DNA of 64,000 nt, taken from NCBI RefSeq assembly GCF_029392015.1, contig NZ_CP113925.1, forward strand, positions 744,001 through 808,000. Direction: 5' to 3'. Positions 17,600-25,566 of this stretch are shown piece after piece. A model generated the notes under the pieces. The model saw nothing but the letters and a program-made list of their open reading frames with translations. It was not told the origin of the DNA and did not search any database. Origin of the DNA: Bifidobacterium sp. ESL0728 (lineage in GTDB: Bacteria; Actinomycetota; Actinomycetes; Actinomycetales; Bifidobacteriaceae). Made by a program: the position numbers and the translations under genes. Every line of letters begins with the position of its first letter. Within the stretch, counting starts at the first letter, position 1.

Positions 17600-17684
17600 G
17601 GACAGGTGTCTGAGCGGCCGAAAGAGACGGTCTTGAAAACCGTTGAGGAGCAATCCTCCGCGAGTTCGAATCTCGCCCTGTCCG
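17600..17684 (+). tRNA. tRNA-Ser (UGA)
   Basis: 85 nt. Acceptor ggacagg / cctgtcc, anticodon stem acggt / accgt with loop cttgaaa (anticodon TGA), a long variable arm and T arm gagttcgaatctc. Discriminator G; CCA is not encoded. Its 3' end is the integration site of the adjacent small island. Confidence 0.95.
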
Positions 17685-17692
17685 CATTACAA
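17666..17692. repeat. Left 27-bp att-like direct repeat (in tRNA-Ser)
   Basis: Positions 17666-17692 (tcgaatctcgccctgtccg onward) are identical to 20502-20528. They cover the T-arm 3' half, acceptor 3' strand and 8 bases past the tRNA. Identity segments of this kind are the standard attL/attR footprint of tRNA-targeting integrases. Confidence 0.88.
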
Positions 17693-17730
17693 AATGGGTT
17701 CTGGGTACTTGTCTATCCAGAACTCATTTG
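17692..17730 (+). terminator. Terminator-like hairpin after tRNA-Ser
   Basis: aaatgggttctgg (17692-17704) with ccagaactcattt (17717-17729), one G-T pair. A different hairpin follows the right att copy at 20527. The remaining bases to 18091 hold no gene I can support. Confidence 0.6.
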
Positions 17731-18044
17731 CTTTATCGAAAAGCCAGTGGCGGCAACGATTTCGGCGTTATGCGCGTTCATCTGTAGGAACTGTATATAT
17801 CCTCGTCGATATACTTCTATAGCTTTCTCTAACGGGGCGAAATGCGGGGCGAGAAAATGCGTTCATTGAGCTTGCCCCTCTTCTCGGTAATTGGGTGATT
17901 TCGCAGGAAATGTAATATGCCAATCTGGGCTTGTAATCGTATGGCTCCTGTTTGTGGGAGTTTTTGTAGTGAGCTGTCCTACCTGTGTGCAGGCAAGTTA
18001 AGCTGAGTTCTTTTAAGGAAGTGGGTAGTCATAGTAATAACTTG

Positions 18045-18091
18045 AAAGGTAACGTAAACAAGAGTAAATTTAACTTAAAAAGGAGTAAATT
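18045..18091 (+). promoter_or_regulatory. Candidate operator and ribosome binding site of the RelB/YafQ operon
   Basis: Directly before the antitoxin start, gagtaaattt and ggagtaaatt flank a tttaacttaaa near-palindrome. RelB-type antitoxins repress their own promoter at such inverted repeats. The aaaggag of the second repeat is also the Shine-Dalgarno. Confidence 0.4.
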
Positions 18092-18358
18092 ATGCAAGCT
18101 TCAGCAGCACGTACGCGTATCCAAATCAGTACCAAAAAAACGCTTAAGGAACAGGCGGAGGCGCTTTTCGATTCGTTGGGAATCGATTTGGGAACGGCGG
18201 TCAATCTCTTTTTGGCGCAGTCGGTGAAGGATGGGGGTTTGCCGTTCCGTCCTACCTCGATTTCCCCGTTCGAGAACGCCGTGCTTGAAGCAGCGCGCGA
18301 GAAGCCGGTCTATGTGGGAAGCATGGATGAGATGAAGGACATCATTGACAATGTTTGA
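18092..18358 (+). CDS. RelB/DinJ family antitoxin
   Basis: 88 aa. The N-terminal half is a ribbon-helix-helix domain (TRIQISTKKTLKEQAEALFDSLGIDLGTAVNLFL, residues about 5-39), typical of DinJ; the C-terminal half (about 50-88) is the toxin-wrapping tail. It overlaps the toxin start by 8 bp, so translation is coupled. First module in the tRNA-Ser island. Confidence 0.92.
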   Translation: MQASAARTRIQISTKKTLKEQAEALFDSLGIDLGTAVNLFLAQSVKDGGLPFRPTSISPFENAVLEAAREKPVYVGSMDEMKDIIDNV

Positions 18359-18629
18359 AGTGGCTTATGAACCGACGTTTCTGCGTGACGTCCGTAAGCT
18401 CAAACGTAAACATTACGATATGGGTAAACTCAATCGGGCCTTGGGCGTGCTGCAGGCTCAGGACAAGGAAGTGCTGAGAACCCGGTATCGCGATCACGCT
18501 TTGAAAGGTAACCTCAAATCGTTCCGCGAGTTGCACGTCGAGGGAGATTGGCTGCTTGTCTATCAAATCGTCAACAAGACGCTCACACTTACTCTCACCC
18601 GCACCGGCAGCCACGATGATGTGCTGTGA
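18351..18629 (+). CDS. YafQ/RelE family mRNA interferase toxin
   Basis: 92 aa from the ATG at 18351 that overlaps the antitoxin stop. A RelE-fold ribosome-dependent endoribonuclease that cleaves mRNA in the A site. Catalytic-type residues of YafQ are in place: DHALKGN, ELHVEGDWLLVY and the terminal GSHDDVL. Full length, hence probably active and neutralised by the upstream DinJ-like protein. Confidence 0.92.
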   Translation: MFEVAYEPTFLRDVRKLKRKHYDMGKLNRALGVLQAQDKEVLRTRYRDHALKGNLKSFRELHVEGDWLLVYQIVNKTLTLTLTRTGSHDDVL

Positions 18630-18749
18630 ATGTGGTTGATACGGGCGATGAAACAATTGGCGATGTCCCGGTCTGAGACATGGGAGCCGGTGACATGCGG
18701 TCGGGAAGAGTTATAAGAGGCTACCTTCCTGCAGGCTCGTCGATCGGGA

Positions 18750-18965
18750 ATGTATGGTGGCAATGATGTGAACCACTGTCTTGCTTGCACGCCTGCATTC
18801 GACAAGGATTCGAATCGTTACATTGCAATCGGTATCGATGGCAGAGGACGATATGTCGAGCTGGTTGTCATTCGTAAGGCTGGTGGCCTGTGGCTGGTCA
18901 TTCATGCGCAGACACCGCCGCGACAAGACATCAAACAGAGATTGGGCTTTGGAAGGAGTCGATAA
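18750..18965 (+). CDS. Small BrnT-like toxin candidate
   Basis: 71 aa. The central part (YIAIGIDGRGRYVELVVIR and LWLVIHAQTPPRQDI) matches the pattern of small actinobacterial BrnT-like proteins (a ligvd.sGr.lElvv strand pair, then IHAm). The N-terminus is shorter than usual, as an in-frame stop lies at 18714, so a truncation or a non-canonical start is possible. Its TAA overlaps the ATG of the next gene. Order would be toxin before antitoxin. Confidence 0.5.
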   Translation: MYGGNDVNHCLACTPAFDKDSNRYIAIGIDGRGRYVELVVIRKAGGLWLVIHAQTPPRQDIKQRLGFGRSR

Positions 18966-19153
18966 TGAGCGATGAGGAACTGTACAAGCTTTTCGGAACG
19001 ACTGAGGATGATGTGAATCGTACGGTCGACAAGGTGGAAGCCGGTGATTATTCTGATTTTGATTTTTCGCAAGTCATGCAGGGGCGGCCCATGGAGAAGG
19101 AACGTATGGAGACGGTTTCTGCGCCGGTGGCGGAGTCCCGTGTGAGGCGATGA
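18965..19153 (+). CDS. Small acidic protein, antitoxin candidate paired with the 18750 gene
   Basis: 62 aa from the ATG in taATG, preceded by a ggaag Shine-Dalgarno. Sequence MSDEELYKLFGTTEDDVNRTV...GDYSDFDFSQVMQGRP is acidic, with a short basic tail. It looks like the small partner proteins found after BrnT-like toxins in actinobacteria. Function inferred from size, coupling and location only. Confidence 0.55.
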   Translation: MSDEELYKLFGTTEDDVNRTVDKVEAGDYSDFDFSQVMQGRPMEKERMETVSAPVAESRVRR

Positions 19154-19249
19154 ATCGCGTGGCCAAAGGGCAGGCATCTCTCGTAGTGAATTCATCCGTC
19201 GCGCCATCGATCGTGAGCTTATGGCGTTGCCGTGATAGGATATTCGTCG

Positions 19250-19804
19250 TTATGACTTTTTGCTGATTCTGTCTGCGAATGTGGTGAGTCCCGCCTCGCG
19301 CAGGCCCTGAATCTCCTCTTTCATGGTGCGCGGAGGGTGTTGCTTACGTTGTGTCATGTGGTGCATGGCAGCGGTAACAGTTTCACAATCGGAATCATAG
19401 AGCCGGGTGAGGAATGTGTCCGGGTGCTCTGCTGTGATGTTATGCCTGCTGAGCTCGGTTGTGGGGAAGTCGGCAAGGTTCATGGTGACGATGGTGGTCG
19501 CCTCGCCTGCTATGGCGGCGGCGAGCACATGTCGGTCATCGGGGTCGGGCAGTGTGAGTCCGTCCATGTAACCCCGCCAGTCGGGCACCTGTGCCCAAGG
19601 ATAGGCGCGGTTCACGGTGTCGAGGAATGAGTCGATTGCTTCGGATGTCGAGTTCTGCCACACTTCCGGCAGGTGACGTTCCGCCTCTTCCATGATCATG
19701 GTTGACCACAATGGCTGGAACATTCCCTCGTCAGCCAAGGTGAGAATCGGATCAAGGACCCAGAGGCGAAAGAAGACGTTCGCGTCGATCACCACAGATT
19801 CCAT
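19250..19804 (-). CDS. PIN-domain toxin (VapC-like, PIN_3 type)
   Basis: 184 aa. The PIN fold is visible: first acidic residue in VVIDANVFFR (about residues 4-13), an acidic cluster in EEAERHLPEVW, and DPDDRHVLAAAI with TIVTMNLADF (about 91-117), which carry the Mg2+-binding Asp residues of PIN ribonucleases. The C-terminal extension of about 60 residues is helical. It starts 11 bp after the HTH gene and is probably its toxin partner. Confidence 0.85.
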   Translation of the reverse strand: MESVVIDANVFFRLWVLDPILTLADEGMFQPLWSTMIMEEAERHLPEVWQNSTSEAIDSFLDTVNRAYPWAQVPDWRGYMDGLTLPDPDDRHVLAAAIAGEATTIVTMNLADFPTTELSRHNITAEHPDTFLTRLYDSDCETVTAAMHHMTQRKQHPPRTMKEEIQGLREAGLTTFADRISKKS

Positions 19805-19815
19805 GAGCGATTTCC

Positions 19816-20199
19816 CTATCGGTTGTTCGCCGGGTCGTAGAGGCCCATGTTCTCGGCTTGATCGCGCATATCATCCAAAGCCGAGCGCCGATCGGATCGC
19901 ATGCGTTTGGCATAAGCGATGACATCGTTTTCGAGCATCATCCTGTTGCCTCCCTGTCCATTGCGACGATAGGGGATAGCGTTGGCGTCGAGCATGCGCT
20001 GCACAGTCTTGCGTGAGACGCCAAGGATTTGGGCGGCTTCGCCGGTGCCGATGGTCCGGTTTGAATCGGAAACGGCCATGGCCGCTTTCATGGCGGCGTC
20101 GAAAGCCTTCTCGTCCAGCTTGTACGTTTTACCGTTGCCTTGCAGTACATAGCGTGCGTTGTTGCTGATTGGCCTTGCCTCAATGGTCGCGATGCTCAT
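19816..20199 (-). CDS. Helix-turn-helix (excisionase/MerR-type) antitoxin
   Basis: 127 aa from the ATG at 20199 with Shine-Dalgarno ggagga; longer upstream starts lack conservation. The DNA-binding domain is TIGTGEAAQILGVSRKTVQRMLD (about residues 49-71) followed by AIPYRRNGQGGNRMM, the winged HTH_17 form. The C-terminal segment (DDMRDQAENMGLYDP) probably binds the PIN toxin. HTH_17/PIN_3 pairs are known actinobacterial toxin-antitoxin operons. Confidence 0.85.
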   Translation of the reverse strand: MSIATIEARPISNNARYVLQGNGKTYKLDEKAFDAAMKAAMAVSDSNRTIGTGEAAQILGVSRKTVQRMLDANAIPYRRNGQGGNRMMLENDVIAYAKRMRSDRRSALDDMRDQAENMGLYDPANNR

Positions 20200-20501
20200 G
20201 ATTGTTTCCTCCCGCAAGTTCCTGGATTCACGGATGTCCAATATGACCAATAGTAGCATAATGGAATCTGTTGTGTATTCGCTTCTGGAACATATCTGAT
20301 AAGGCGACACGGACGGCGGATTCAAGGGTTCTGGAGGCGTGGATTTGGCGTAATCCGGGCAGATGCCGTCGTTATTGTGTGCCGTGTAGGCTCGTATGTA
20401 ACCGTAAGGAAACATTTCTAGCGGGGCGAGATGCAGAGCGGGTCCAATTTCACGGACAGGTAGAATCCTAATGATTTCAATGATGTAAGCTACGATTTCG
20501 C

Positions 20502-20528
20502 TCGAATCTCGCCCTGTCCGCATTACAA
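20502..20528. repeat. Right 27-bp att-like direct repeat
   Basis: Exact copy of 17666-17692. Together they bound a 2.8-kb segment with three toxin-antitoxin-like modules and no recombinase. Confidence 0.88.
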
Positions 20529-20794: not shown

Positions 20795-21067
20795 ATGGCC
20801 GAAAGTGAAATCAAGTCGAGCGATGTGGAGGCTCAAGAGGCAATCGGTGAACTGACAGGTCTTGATGCGTCGGGTTTCGCGAACCAGTCAGTGACCATGG
20901 GGTCGGCCACGGTCGCGTCTATGAAGGCCGGGGCGAATCTGTGCAACGCGTTGATGGGTGACGTTTCTGATGTAGTCTCTTGCGTTCTGTCTCAGGCCAA
21001 CAAGTTCCCGCGGATTGCGCATGTCATCGAGGAACGAGACGAAGCCACCGCGCAGCGATGGAAGTGA
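20795..21067 (+). CDS. Type VII secretion helper, DUF3130/TIGR04197-like (Lap1-type)
   Basis: 90 aa, predicted all-helical, WXG100-sized. It resembles the small DUF3130/TIGR04197 proteins (segment SVTMGSATVASMKAGANLCNALMGD) encoded first in LXG-effector operons, where they form a targeting complex with the LXG domain for T7SSb export. It is followed after 11 bp by a coiled-coil protein and then an LXG-like toxin, the usual order. No WXG motif is present. The codon and base composition look more AT-rich than the flanking housekeeping genes. Confidence 0.72.
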   Translation: MAESEIKSSDVEAQEAIGELTGLDASGFANQSVTMGSATVASMKAGANLCNALMGDVSDVVSCVLSQANKFPRIAHVIEERDEATAQRWK

Positions 21068-21078
21068 GATAAAGCGTT

Positions 21079-21471
21079 ATGGGATACTATTCGGGGAATT
21101 CTGTCGCTCATTCGAAACCTTCCGATGCTGAAGAAGAAGATTTGAAACGGGCCAAACGTCTTCGTCAGATCACTTCGGAACAGGAGGATCTGGAAAATCT
21201 GCGCTGGAGCGAAAACGCTCGCGATGAGCAGTTTGCCGAGGAGTTCTCGACGCTTGCAGGGCGGACGCGGCAGCTGTACGAAGATGCCGGGGTTGCTCTT
21301 TCGCAACGCAAGCAGGAACAATTGGCTGTCATAGAGGATGTTGAGCGAAACGTACGTGAGTCGGCGGAACGGCATAGCGATGAAGTCAACAGATATTGTT
21401 TGGACGCTTCGATGAGGCTGGAGGAAGAGACTGACGAGCTTAGGAAGAAAAGAAGGGATTCGCGATGGTAG
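21079..21471 (+). CDS. Coiled-coil LXG-operon accessory protein (Lap2-type)
   Basis: 130 aa, highly charged and helical almost throughout (EEEDLKRAKRLRQ, EQEDLENLRW, RKQEQLAVIEDVERN), without membrane segments. Its size, charge and location between a DUF3130-like gene and the effector match the second helper of LXG operons. Its stop overlaps the effector start by 7 bp. Confidence 0.65.
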   Translation: MGYYSGNSVAHSKPSDAEEEDLKRAKRLRQITSEQEDLENLRWSENARDEQFAEEFSTLAGRTRQLYEDAGVALSQRKQEQLAVIEDVERNVRESAERHSDEVNRYCLDASMRLEEETDELRKKRRDSRW

Positions 21472-22874
21472 TTTATGATTCCGGCGATTCGGACGCAATG
21501 ATGAACGCCTTGCAAGCCAACCTGAAGGGCGCCAGCGAGGTGTTCGGCCGACTCTCAAAAGGTAGTGGCCATCTTGTGAACACTGTGAACTCTGGGATGT
21601 TAAAGGGAGCGGCGTACATGGCCGGCAAGGGAATGTTCGTCACGTATATTGCTCCGATGGTGCACCAGCTCAATGAGGCTGTCGGAGATATACGGGACGA
21701 TCTGGACGCATACCGCACCTCTGACGGGCAGATACGCGCGGTCGACAATCATATCGACGGTGACTTAGTCCAGAAACAGCTTGAAAACACAAACCATATG
21801 ATCGATGTCGTGCAGCAAAAGATTAAGACGGATCAGGACAAGTTTAATTCGATGGAGACAGCCAGCTCTTCAGCGCAGGATGCAAAGGCTTTGGGGACAG
21901 ACTACAGGAAGCTGCAGAAGCAACTTGACAATTTGCAGAAGCTAAAGGCCGATTATGATGAAGAATTGGCTGCACTTCAGGCGTTTGTTGATGATACTGC
22001 TCCGTTGTTCAAGGACAGTGCGCAAGTGTTTAAGGATGCAATGCGGGGCGTGAAGGCTATCAACAGTACACGTGCCAACGTTGATGGGTCAGTCGTATTT
22101 CCTCCCGGTACGGATATGAGTTGGTTGGCAGCGTTACAAGGGGACAAACTGAAATCCGGCTTAGATCCGAATACTCTTCCCGTCTTCTACAGAGTCAAGG
22201 TCACGGAGATTCAGGATGACCCGAATCTCAAGCCCGAAGACAAGGCCAAAAAAATTGAGCAGATCTACGAAGATTGGCTGCATTCCTTGGCTCCTGGCGC
22301 TTTTGACGAATATGCCAAAGCCAGAAGGAAATACGACAAGGCAAAACAAGACTATGAAAGCAAGTATCCCGGCAAAAAATATCATTTCGTCGCTGACGAC
22401 CCCGGGATTATTGCAGCTGATGAGAAGCTTTCAAAAGTACTGCTTAATACGCATGTCAACATTCGTGTTGCTGCACGGGGCCTCGGCGATGATGTCGCTA
22501 AGATTTCGTTCAAAAACGATTTAACGGAGTTTTACAACATGGTGCAAACGGATCATCCATTAGATTTGAAAAGTCATCCTTATGGGAATGATAATTATTC
22601 TATTTGGTCGAGAGGGTGGGATGGCAACCCGCCGGATGAGAAGAACAACGGTTATCCGTCTTCGGACTTTCTTGGCAATTATCTTTATGGATATTATGGC
22701 AGTAGTGTCGGCTTCGACTCAGGAACGTTGCATAATGGAGCAGGTGCTGCCCAGATACTATCAGATGCAGAAAAGTGGCGTCTTAATTTCCATGGTGATA
22801 ATCAGGGGGATTCTGATGATATCGACGAAGGAATCAAGGACTATGGCAAAGCGCAAGATAAGAAACGCCGTTAA
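21465..22874 (+). CDS. LXG-like type VII effector with polymorphic toxin type 44-like C-terminus
   Basis: 469 aa without signal peptide. Residues 1 to about 200 are helical and LXG-like (export domain), with a Gly/Ala-rich hydrophobic stretch near residues 45-65. A linker rich in Lys/Asp follows. The C-terminal about 130 residues (FYNMVQTDHPLDLKSH, then SSDFLGNYLYGYYGSSVGF, GAGAAQILSDA, DSDDIDEGIKDYG) match the pattern I know for polymorphic toxin type 44: a D-K pair, a GN..yGy.G..vGf block, aG..q, and D..D...I..G. Probably an antibacterial toxin delivered by a T7SSb apparatus encoded elsewhere. The immunity gene would be the overlapping next ORF. Confidence 0.72.
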   Translation: MVVYDSGDSDAMMNALQANLKGASEVFGRLSKGSGHLVNTVNSGMLKGAAYMAGKGMFVTYIAPMVHQLNEAVGDIRDDLDAYRTSDGQIRAVDNHIDGDLVQKQLENTNHMIDVVQQKIKTDQDKFNSMETASSSAQDAKALGTDYRKLQKQLDNLQKLKADYDEELAALQAFVDDTAPLFKDSAQVFKDAMRGVKAINSTRANVDGSVVFPPGTDMSWLAALQGDKLKSGLDPNTLPVFYRVKVTEIQDDPNLKPEDKAKKIEQIYEDWLHSLAPGAFDEYAKARRKYDKAKQDYESKYPGKKYHFVADDPGIIAADEKLSKVLLNTHVNIRVAARGLGDDVAKISFKNDLTEFYNMVQTDHPLDLKSHPYGNDNYSIWSRGWDGNPPDEKNNGYPSSDFLGNYLYGYYGSSVGFDSGTLHNGAGAAQILSDAEKWRLNFHGDNQGDSDDIDEGIKDYGKAQDKKRR

Positions 22875-23253
22875 ACGTCACAAGGTGGTGACCTCGATCA
22901 TTGTTGTGCTTCTAGTTCCTGTTTTGCTGCTTGTGTTCTGGTTTTCTTTTGCGGCTATCAAGTACTATACGTTCGACGCCATCTATTATCCATATCAGGA
23001 GAAGCGGTTCAATGTGAAAAACCGCGTTGAACTGATTGAAGGTGTATCTCTCTATGTAAGCAGTGACAGCCCTGACGTAACGGTGAAGGTTCAGAGCGAC
23101 GATGGCGTTAGCTACGGGTCTTTCCGCGGCGTGAGGAAAAATTGGCGGACCGAGGTGGGCGAACACTACACAATCGTTATCAAGAACAATACTGACCGCT
23201 GGATCACCGCACACATCGATTATTCGGATGATACCTGTTCGCCGATTTGCTAG
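22843..23253 (+). CDS. Small membrane protein, immunity candidate for the LXG toxin
   Basis: 136 aa from the ATG at 22843, overlapping the toxin 3' end by 32 bp in another frame. Basic N-terminus (MAKRKIRNAVKRHKVV), one transmembrane helix at about residues 16-40, then a beta-rich exposed domain of about 95 residues ending in a Cys pair (DDTCSPIC). Immunity proteins are commonly encoded directly after, or overlapping, their toxin. Function is inferred from position; the family is not recognised. Confidence 0.6.
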   Translation: MAKRKIRNAVKRHKVVTSIIVVLLVPVLLLVFWFSFAAIKYYTFDAIYYPYQEKRFNVKNRVELIEGVSLYVSSDSPDVTVKVQSDDGVSYGSFRGVRKNWRTEVGEHYTIVIKNNTDRWITAHIDYSDDTCSPIC

Positions 23254-24804: not shown

Positions 24805-25419
24805 GTGACGGTTGTGGAAACATCAATAACCGACGTGGTGCTTGGGCTCGATGGGGTGCTCGTTGAGTGGGACGGGCGACGGCCGATTATCGGGCAATAT
24901 CCTGAAGGAATCGCCGATATGATGTTTGACCCGCATGACGAGTGGGGGATGGAGTTTTATCTCGCGATGCTCGAAAGCGGGTGGAGCGAGGAACGCGTGC
25001 TCGCTTCCTACGAAAAACACCACGGGCCGGCAATCGCTTGGGTGCTCAAGATGTACCTCGACCATGAGGAAGACGGGTTCGTCGGTATGATGCCGGAGAT
25101 GCCTGAGTTGTTGCGGGATTTGGACGCTGCGGGAATCCGTTTGTGGGGACTGGCGAATACTACGAGCAAGCATCTGAAACTGGCCCGGCAACGTTTCCCG
25201 GAACTCGCCATGTTGCGTGATTTTATGGTTTCTTCCGAGGAAAAGCTTCGGTTGCCTGATCCGGTTCTGGTTCATCGAGCTATCGAACATTTCGGCATTG
25301 ACCCGGCGACGACGTTGTTCGTCGACAACGATGATCGCGCCGTTGGGAAATTGAGTGGTTTGGGTTTTCGCGCGACTGCTTTCAAAGATAGCGATACTTT
25401 GCGAAATGAGTTGTTCTGA
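24805..25419 (+). CDS. HAD-superfamily protein lacking the usual nucleophile
   Basis: 204 aa; GTG at 24805, with an alternative GTG at 24814 better spaced from the aaagagg ribosome binding site. Related to HAD-IA hydrolases: motif II-like LWGLANTT, motif III Lys region SSEEKLRLPDP, motif IV FVDNDDRAV. Motif I reads VLGLDGVLVEW, where relatives have FDLGGVLVDW: the nucleophilic Asp is Gly and an Asp appears two residues later. It may therefore be inactive or altered. The 3' end is duplicated downstream as a tandem repeat. Confidence 0.78.
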   Translation: MTVVETSITDVVLGLDGVLVEWDGRRPIIGQYPEGIADMMFDPHDEWGMEFYLAMLESGWSEERVLASYEKHHGPAIAWVLKMYLDHEEDGFVGMMPEMPELLRDLDAAGIRLWGLANTTSKHLKLARQRFPELAMLRDFMVSSEEKLRLPDPVLVHRAIEHFGIDPATTLFVDNDDRAVGKLSGLGFRATAFKDSDTLRNELF

Positions 25420-25566
25420 TCCCGTCGTTTCAGATTTTGACGCGAAACAGTTCAAAGCCGATGAAACTTTGCGAAATGAATTGTTCTGATTCCGCCGATT
25501 CGGGTTTCGATGCGAAATGGTTCAAAGCCGAGCCGCTACAAGAGAAATTGTTCTAATTGTGCTGAT
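25399..25566. repeat. 70-bp tandem repeat seeded by the HAD gene tail
   Basis: Unit 1 at 25399-25468 begins in the last codons of the HAD gene (ttgcgaaatgagttgttctga). Unit 2 at 25469-25538 and partial unit 3 from 25539 follow. Conserved blocks are ttgcgaaatga(g/a)ttgttctgat and gcgaaa..gttcaaagccga. The preceding codons (actttcaaagatagcgatac) also fit the unit, so part of the repeat lies inside the coding region. Confidence 0.88.

What the first reader, a model, noticed from the sequence alone, without database searches (positions are those of the whole stretch)
20795..23253. LXG-type type VII effector operon with toxin type 44-like C-terminus in a bifidobacterial-like genome
Order and sizes (90-aa helper, 130-aa coiled coil, 469-aa effector, overlapping 136-aa membrane protein) follow the LXG operons known from Bacillota T7SSb. 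The C-terminal pattern resembles polymorphic toxin type 44. No secretion machinery gene is in the window. An LXG effector next to a toxin-antitoxin island in an actinobacterium suggests interbacterial competition, and the immunity protein looks new to me.
Basis: partly seen in the sequence, partly recalled or inferred. Interest (0 to 1): 0.8.

Follow-up and report, generated by a model that had tools for sequence, protein, structure and literature searches.

The report
Bifidobacterial type VII secreted toxin operon
A Bifidobacterium carries a four-gene weapon (two export helpers, a toxin and a matching immunity protein) that is probably fired at neighbouring bacteria through its own type VII secretion machine, and whose export module is shared across phyla with lactic acid bacteria.

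Summary
In detail: 90-, 130-, 469- and 136-aa genes lie at 20795-23253 in the stated order. The C-terminus is Ntox44 (PF15607, E 1.3e-14). The window effector does not match Pfam LXG, and the helpers match neither DUF3130 nor DUF3958. The N-terminal domain is still LXG-like: a Lactococcus homologue passes Pfam's LXG cut-off, L-x-G is invariant in 14 of 14 sequences, and the model aligns with TelA-LXG (Z 11.4, 209 residues). The genome encodes, 1.1 Mb away, all five core parts of T7SSd, a type published for Bifidobacterium; EssB is absent, so it is not T7SSb. The Lap1-like helper is 64% and the LXG-like domain 49% identical to proteins of Lactococcus nasutitermitis, which has T7SSb, while the ATPases share 28%: apparently one mobile targeting module for two machine types. 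The immunity protein has one membrane helix and a predicted outward beta-domain. At Ntox44 loci, 7 of 10 unrelated neighbour families show this topology (background 19 of 149), suggesting that Ntox44, filed as a predicted RNase, acts outside the cytoplasm. The toxin-antitoxin island is a separate insertion at tRNA-Ser. Export, toxicity and immunity are untested.

The parts
20795..21067 (+). Lap1-like targeting protein, 90 aa; [I/F]xxxD motif at residues 78-82 (IEERD)
   Evidence: 64% identical to L. nasutitermitis and 58% to a Streptococcaceae MAG homologue; motif columns; no Pfam or NCBIfam match
21079..21471 (+). Lap2-like helical/coiled-coil protein, 130 aa
   Evidence: 90-91% identical in G091/G084/G089 first copy; only 18-31% to Bacillota proteins in the same gene position; no Pfam or NCBIfam match
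21465..22169 (+). LXG-like N-terminal targeting domain of the effector (residues 1-235); L46-x-G48
   Evidence: 49% identical to L. nasutitermitis and a Streptococcaceae MAG; LxG invariant in 14 of 14; model aligned with TelA-LXG 8gmh
22170..22529 (+). linker / second helical region (residues 236-355)
   Evidence: conserved among the Bifidobacterium homologues; no family match over a cut-off
22530..22874 (+). Ntox44 toxin domain (residues 356-469) with DxK (367-369), GNxxxG (404-409), DxxxD (445-449)
   Evidence: PF15607 E 1.3e-14; motifs; invariance in five Bifidobacterium sequences
22843..23253 (+). candidate immunity protein, 136 aa: N-in single TM helix (15-33) and predicted extracytoplasmic 7-stranded beta-domain
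   Evidence: in tandem paralogues downstream of the effector in relatives
17600..17685 (+). tRNA-Ser(TGA), left neighbour and insertion point
   Evidence: ARAGORN
17693..20528 (.). toxin-antitoxin insertion (RelB/YafQ, PIN/HTH) bounded by 27-nt direct repeats 17666-17692 and 20502-20528; not part of the effector operon

Best explanation
This is an interbacterial effector operon. The 90-aa (Lap1-like) and 130-aa (Lap2-like) proteins bind the helical LXG-like N-terminus of the 469-aa effector and guide it to the T7SSd ATPase TsdC encoded 1.1 Mb away. The effector is exported. Its Ntox44 C-terminus, with conserved Asp/Lys residues in DxK, GNxxxG and DxxxD, attacks a target at or outside the membrane of neighbouring Gram-positive cells. 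The 136-aa membrane-anchored immunity protein holds its beta-domain on the outer face and neutralises incoming toxin. Extra immunity copies in relatives protect against variant toxins. Shown: genes, homologies, the machinery genes, co-occurrence, immunity topology by prediction. Inferred: complex formation, export by T7SSd, toxicity, site of action, immunity.
For: Ntox44 match. The five T7SSd core parts in the genome: TsdA WXG100 70.1 bits, TsdC TIGR03928 823.5 bits with FHA, TsdD kinase with one TM, TsdH-like protein with one TM, TsdI-like protein with signal, Ig-like domains and C-terminal TM (definition PMC11217815). All 5 of 112 genus genomes with Ntox44 are among the 7 of 112 with EssC over its cut-off (P 1.6e-7 ignoring relatedness). 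The Lap1-like protein and the N-domain are homologous to Lactococcus and Enterococcus proteins, which in L028-L030 and L054 are encoded one to two small genes after EssC/FtsK. LxG motif 14/14. TelA-LXG alignment. Immunity topology and its recurrence beside unrelated Ntox44 genes, 7 of 10 families against 19 of 149 background. Some stand-alone Ntox44 proteins have signal-like N-termini.
Against: No direct match to the LXG, DUF3130 or DUF3958 models. The Ntox44 domain itself could not be modelled (pLDDT under 40 from residue 331 on), so its chemistry is unknown. The operon is unlinked to the T7SSd locus. Similarity of the Lap2-like protein to Bacillota proteins is at noise level (18-31%). The co-occurrence rests on related genomes. 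A sequence search of solved structures did not find TelA. 3 of 10 neighbour families do not show the topology. Ntox44 is filed as a predicted RNase in print (PMC3482391).
Confidence: 0.8

Rival explanations
1. Same operon and export route, but Ntox44 is an RNase that enters the target cytoplasm, as annotated; the membrane-anchored immunity protein blocks uptake or catches the toxin on its way in.
For: Zhang et al. 2012 list Ntox44 in the table after the heading 'Predicted metal-independent RNase toxins' and before the next heading that I saw; short stretches between were not seen (passages). Later papers repeat RNase or nuclease (passages).
Against: No activity test was seen in those passages; outward-facing neighbours recur in 7 of 10 families and some Ntox44 proteins carry signal-like N-termini.
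Confidence: 0.25
2. The operon is a relic: acquired with an island but not exported by the T7SSd, whose real substrates are encoded at its own locus.
For: Unlinked to the T7SSd locus, which has its own candidate substrates (a 437-aa protein next to a 77-aa WXG100-like one); G012 has a split effector frame and G025 only remnants.
Against: The effector frame is open in four genomes (G000, G091, G084, and twice in G089) at 60-85% identity with conserved motifs; G025, with remnants only, has no EssC match at E<=1e-60, as expected if the machine is needed.
Confidence: 0.12
3. The proteins are an anti-phage or abortive-infection module, in keeping with the neighbouring toxin-antitoxin genes.
For: Neighbouring RelB/YafQ and PIN/HTH genes, the HTH protein with a PADLOC mad1 match (E 9.6e-7); tRNA-Ser hotspot.
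Against: PADLOC matches of the effector are weak and lie in its coiled-coil part; the immunity protein has none (the two helpers were not scanned there). The island is a separate insertion; homologues sit near EssC.
Confidence: 0.03

Closest known systems
LXG-Lap1-Lap2 effector operons of T7SSb (TelC/TelD of Streptococcus intermedius; PMC9600955, passages seen)
   Same: Two small helical proteins, effector and immunity in one operon; LxG motif; hydrophobic-xxx-D motif near the end of the Lap1-like protein; C-terminal polymorphic toxin; model aligned with TelA-LXG
   Different: Profiles for LXG, DUF3130 and DUF3958 do not match; Ile in place of Phe in the motif in 10 of 11 aligned Lap1-like proteins; host is an actinobacterium with T7SSd
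T7SSd (Garrett, Higginson and Palmer 2024, PMC11217815; abstract, sections 9 and 15 and passages seen)
   Same: All five core components have counterparts in this genome; the paper names Bifidobacterium
   Different: The section read names an LXG-like toxin at an Olsenella T7SSd locus only; this operon is distant from the machine; a weak YukD-like candidate TsdB is present here, a component which the paper did not find in T7SSd
Ntox44 / polymorphic toxin type 44 (PF15607)
   Same: Score over the cut-off; DxK, GNxxxG and DxxxD motifs
   Different: No immunity family was listed for Ntox44 in 2012; here a membrane-anchored beta-domain family, in tandem copies in relatives
Targeting modules of Lactococcus nasutitermitis and a Streptococcaceae MAG (L026, L025)
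   Same: Lap1-like 58-64% and N-domain 49% identical
   Different: Different Lap2-like proteins, different C-terminal domains; T7SSb EssC in both genomes, EssB shown in the first

Membership tests
Ntox44 (PF15607) | Score over Pfam's cut-off and DxK, GNxxxG, DxxxD motifs | tested here: met
   54.9 bits against 24; motifs at 367, 404, 445
LXG effector | Window protein over the PF04740 cut-off | tested here: not met
   No PF04740 match at E<=10; the only LXG match in the genome is another locus, 31.9 bits
LXG effector | Homology of the N-domain to a protein over the PF04740 cut-off | tested here: met
   L028 homologue (28% identity, E 5e-18) scores 33.5 against 26.5; L030 (22.2), L026 (19.4) and L025 (14.3) are below it
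LXG effector | L-x-G motif in the turn between the first two helices | tested here: met
   L46, G48 invariant in 14 of 14; turn 43-48 between helices 6-42 and 49-93 of the model, low confidence there
LXG effector | LXG fold | tested here: inconclusive
   8gmh is row 3 with Z 11.4, rmsd 5.1, 209 aligned; helical bundles can reach 13 by common arrangement; Foldseek rank 2, E 0.011
Lap1 (DUF3130/TIGR04197) | Profile match | tested here: not met
   0 families; not among the matches in the own genome at E<=10; the L. ileimucosae homologue only 13.8 bits against 26
Lap1 (DUF3130/TIGR04197) | FxxxD export motif | tested here: inconclusive
   IxxxD in 10 of 11, FxxxD in G012; that this column is the published motif is my own reading
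Lap2 (DUF3958) | Profile match | tested here: not met
   0 families
T7SSd machinery in the genome | TsdA, TsdC, TsdD, TsdH, TsdI | tested here: met
   against the description; TsdA, TsdC and the TsdD kinase by profile, TsdH and TsdI by architecture
T7SSb machinery in the genome | EssB/YukC (PF10140) | tested here: not met
   No match at E<=1 in G000; present in G113 and G114
T7SS substrate | Secretion that depends on the ATPase | not testable with these tools
   needs a bench test

The most novel reading that the evidence does not exclude
Ntox44 is not an RNase but an envelope-acting toxin that works outside the cytoplasm, guarded by several unrelated membrane-anchored immunity families; and one Lap-LXG targeting module serves two different machines, T7SSb in Lactobacillales and T7SSd in Bifidobacterium, moving between phyla as a cassette.
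Probability: 0.55. Interest if true: 0.65.

Novelty: new variant of a known kind. Interest (0 to 1): 0.55.

Why it matters
In the one paper of the library that uses the name T7SSd, the sections read give candidate substrates by gene neighbourhood only. A substrate operon whose targeting module is homologous to that of T7SSb effectors would let one ask what a T7SS reads on its cargo, using two machines whose ATPases share 26-29% identity. The immunity topology makes a clear prediction about where a widespread, unassigned toxin domain acts.

Tried and rejected
Direct profile searches for LXG and Lap families on the window proteins failed. Solved-structure searches by sequence: the N-domain gave 166 matches, of which the 60 shown are mostly coiled coils such as viral spikes, none TelA; the toxin gave none, the Lap1-like and immunity families one weak chance match each. 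Two viral-contig scans found no relative. The plasmid search found three N-domain matches in Enterococcus plasmids and the phage search two in Enterococcus records; neither covered the toxin domain. A plasmid search with the toxin end of L092 (145 aa) found nothing at E<=1e-3. The full effector model failed for the toxin domain, so no fold of Ntox44 is claimed. Structure matches of the immunity model (GOLD domains, CUB, enterotoxin C-domain and others, best Z 7.9) are common beta-sandwich arrangements and were not used. One weak PHROG match of the immunity protein (E 0.003, unknown function) was not followed. A phage or defence origin was thought unlikely. One search was a badly posed paper search (19,642 papers) and is not used; one search replaced it. 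The bee link of ESL strains is recalled and was not found in the library.

Topology test, rows handled: one search took 29 loci; the motif was found in 28 (not in L105). 24 had a next ORF: 17 single-TM outward, 5 without TM (L053, L086-L088, L104), 1 with five TM, 1 with a single TM too far in because the longest start was used. 4 had none, the window among them because its immunity ORF extends upstream of the rule's limit. For the family count (26 sequences) I set the ORFs of the window, G091, G012, G084, G089 (both copies) and L105 by hand and left out L098, L099 and L106. L094 scores under Pfam's cut-off but was kept; its family has other members. The exceptions are L086-L088, L096 and L104. 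The background (149 gene pairs from 20 loci) is mostly Bifidobacterium, not matched by phylum, and the P value treats families as independent. TM calls are by hydropathy alone.

Full report
What is there. Searches confirm four ORFs on the + strand: 90, 130, 469 and 136 aa, the last two overlapping by 32 bases. The 469-aa protein ends in Ntox44 (PF15607, 54.9 bits, cut-off 24, residues 356-460) with DxK, GNxxxG and DxxxD motifs, the three that Zhang et al. 2012 give for the family (PMC3482391, passages). No Pfam or NCBIfam model matched the other three proteins at E<=10, and no LXG model matched the effector.

Conservation. In the genus, 6 of 112 genomes match the effector: G000, G091, G084, G089 (two copies), G012 (frame split near residues 130-136) and G025 (remnants). 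The effector frame is open in G000, G091, G084 and both G089 copies. Ntox44 occurs in 5 of 112. Between G000 and G091 the four proteins are 85-92% identical.

LXG kinship. The genome-contig scan found seven loci: Bifidobacterium sp. ESL0784 (85%), one of Lactococcus nasutitermitis and two of a Streptococcaceae MAG (N-domain 49%), and three further Lactococcus loci (27-28%). L028's effector passes Pfam's LXG cut-off (33.5 against 26.5), while L030 (22.2), L026 (19.4) and L025 (14.3) stay below it. In 14 aligned N-domains L46 and G48 are invariant. The model of the N-domain is moderate (pLDDT of ten-residue blocks 50-83 over residues 1-200). TelA-LXG (8gmh) is Foldseek rank 2 (E 0.011) and row 3 of the second look (Z 11.4, 209 residues, rmsd 5.1). 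That is below the level, about 13, at which helical bundles can be trusted alone, and a profile search of solved structures did not list TelA among the 60 rows shown.

Helpers. The 90-aa protein is 64% identical (58/90) to the L. nasutitermitis protein and 58% (52/90) to the MAG's. In 11 aligned sequences K70-F71-P72 and R81-D82 are invariant, with I (10) or F (1) at 78, which I read as the counterpart of the FxxxD export motif of Lap1 (PMC9600955, passages). In L028-L030 the trio starts one small gene after EssC, and on the plasmid of an Enterococcus from Polyrhachis two small genes after the FtsK-domain gene (L054). The 130-aa protein occupies the Lap2 position, but its similarity to Bacillota proteins there (18-31%) is no evidence by itself.

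Machinery. The genome has an EssC-type ATPase over the TIGR03928 cut-off (823.9 bits) beside a WXG100 protein, a kinase with one TM, a single-TM protein with a long cytoplasmic tail, and a 1,994-aa Ig-like surface protein with signal and C-terminal TM. These correspond to the five core parts of T7SSd (PMC11217815, section 9), a type reported there for Bifidobacterium. EssB is absent here and present in the two Lactococcus genomes tested; these two and the MAG have T7SSb-level EssC matches (3 of 3). EssC passes the cut-off in 7 of 112 genus genomes (17 of 112 have some match at E<=1e-60), and all five with Ntox44 are among the seven (P 1.6e-7 if genomes were independent, which they are not).

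A mobile module. TsdC shares 26% identity over 1,260 residues with L. ileimucosae EssC and 28% over 913 with that of L. nasutitermitis, and only 40% with TsdC of G091, although the operons of G000 and G091 are 85-92% identical. The operon has 49.5% G+C against 55.1% for the window. It lies beside the tRNA-Ser end in G000 and G091, further from it in G084 and the first G089 copy, and at other sites in G012 and the second G089 copy. So the operon moves apart from the machine.

Immunity protein and site of action. The 136-aa protein has one TM helix (15-33), 7 Lys/Arg before it and 1 in the 15 residues after, and a predicted seven-stranded domain beyond (mean pLDDT 68.6). Paralogues follow the effector: 5 tblastn matches in G091, 2 each in G012, G084 and the first G089 copy, 1 at the second G089 copy, 1 in the window. 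To test whether this topology goes with Ntox44 in general I searched the order of L. nasutitermitis (Lactobacillales, recalled; 9 of 395 genomes), Actinomycetota (2 of 396, one of them G000) and the phylum of L. nasutitermitis (Bacillota; 11 of 398) and examined the gene after the toxin at 29 loci. The candidates fall into 10 unrelated families; 7 of them are single-TM outward proteins or, in L089, lipoprotein-like. The same rule applied to other genes gave 19 of 149; P 4.6e-5. Stand-alone Ntox44 proteins in L087, L100 and L106 begin with a signal-like hydrophobic stretch, and L086 and L088 look alike by eye. Against this, L086-L088 have a next gene without TM (with a three-TM gene upstream), L096 a five-TM one, and L104 none that is credible. 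I infer that Ntox44 acts outside the cytoplasm. Outward immunity to a T7SS toxin has a precedent in EsxX and ExiCD (PMC12744356, abstract). The RNase label goes back to a table where Ntox44 stands after the heading of predicted metal-independent RNase toxins and is repeated as RNase or nuclease in PMC7790226, PMC9134191, PMC12165300 and PMC13288982 (passages); none of those passages reports a test.

The toxin-antitoxin neighbours. RelB/YafQ and PIN/HTH genes sit between two exact 27-nt copies of the tRNA-Ser end, 17666-17692 and 20502-20528. In G091 the tRNA end occurs once (23 of the 27 bases) and the sequence that follows it aligns with the sequence right of the second repeat, without that island. 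The island is therefore a separate insertion.

Literature. Searches for Bifidobacterium with type VII secretion and LXG, Bifidobacterium with EssC or WXG100 (25 of 156 papers listed), T7SSd (one paper), TsdC and Ntox44 found T7SSd in Bifidobacterium named in print, but no paper in the listings or passages that I saw describing a Bifidobacterium LXG operon or an Ntox44 immunity family. Most subscription papers are not in the library.

Noticed in passing
L015 3994-4287 (-), own genome C1 1879996-1880286: A 97-aa candidate ubiquitin-like TsdB near TsdC; 11 of 112 genomes match: close in G012, G083, G084 and G089 (twice), weaker in G097 and G091; four more (G003, G005, G010, G047) lie in what looks like an unrelated gene. 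PF08817 YukD matches 2 of 5 members at E<=10, best 0.0018 (G091, 19.4 bits, cut-off 27), the own-genome protein not. G083 has it without an EssC match, G088 has EssC without it. PMC11217815 reported no such protein for T7SSd.
   Followed up: partly
L016 7465-8238 (-): The TsdH-like tail has six TTLL repeats in acidic stretches; possible phospho-sites of the TsdD kinase read by the TsdC FHA domain (inference).
   Followed up: no
L017 10017-12860 (-), own genome C1 about 2535000-2538000: A second effector operon: 97-aa and 128-aa helpers, a 459-aa protein with LXG and calpain-like PF00648, and a 266-aa single-TM immunity candidate.
   Followed up: partly
window 17666-20528: Toxin-antitoxin insertion of 2836 bases between exact tRNA-Ser end repeats, no integrase noticed inside; its HTH protein has a PADLOC mad1 match, E 9.6e-7.
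   Followed up: partly
L065 (G091) and L015 (own genome): TsdC of two relatives is only 40% identical although their effector operons are 85-92% identical: the machine locus has variants.
   Followed up: partly
window 25365-25504: 70-nt tandem duplication (73% identical) over the end of the HAD-like gene.
   Followed up: no
L022, L021, L023: Decayed copies: G012 effector split in two frames, the lap1 beside the second G089 effector in two frames, G025 remnants only.
   Followed up: no
L065 13920-14288, L070 3450-3812: DUF4176 proteins (PF13780, 72 bits) at two Bifidobacterium T7SSd loci; one passage notes DUF4176 genes among T7SS genes, function unknown.
   Followed up: partly
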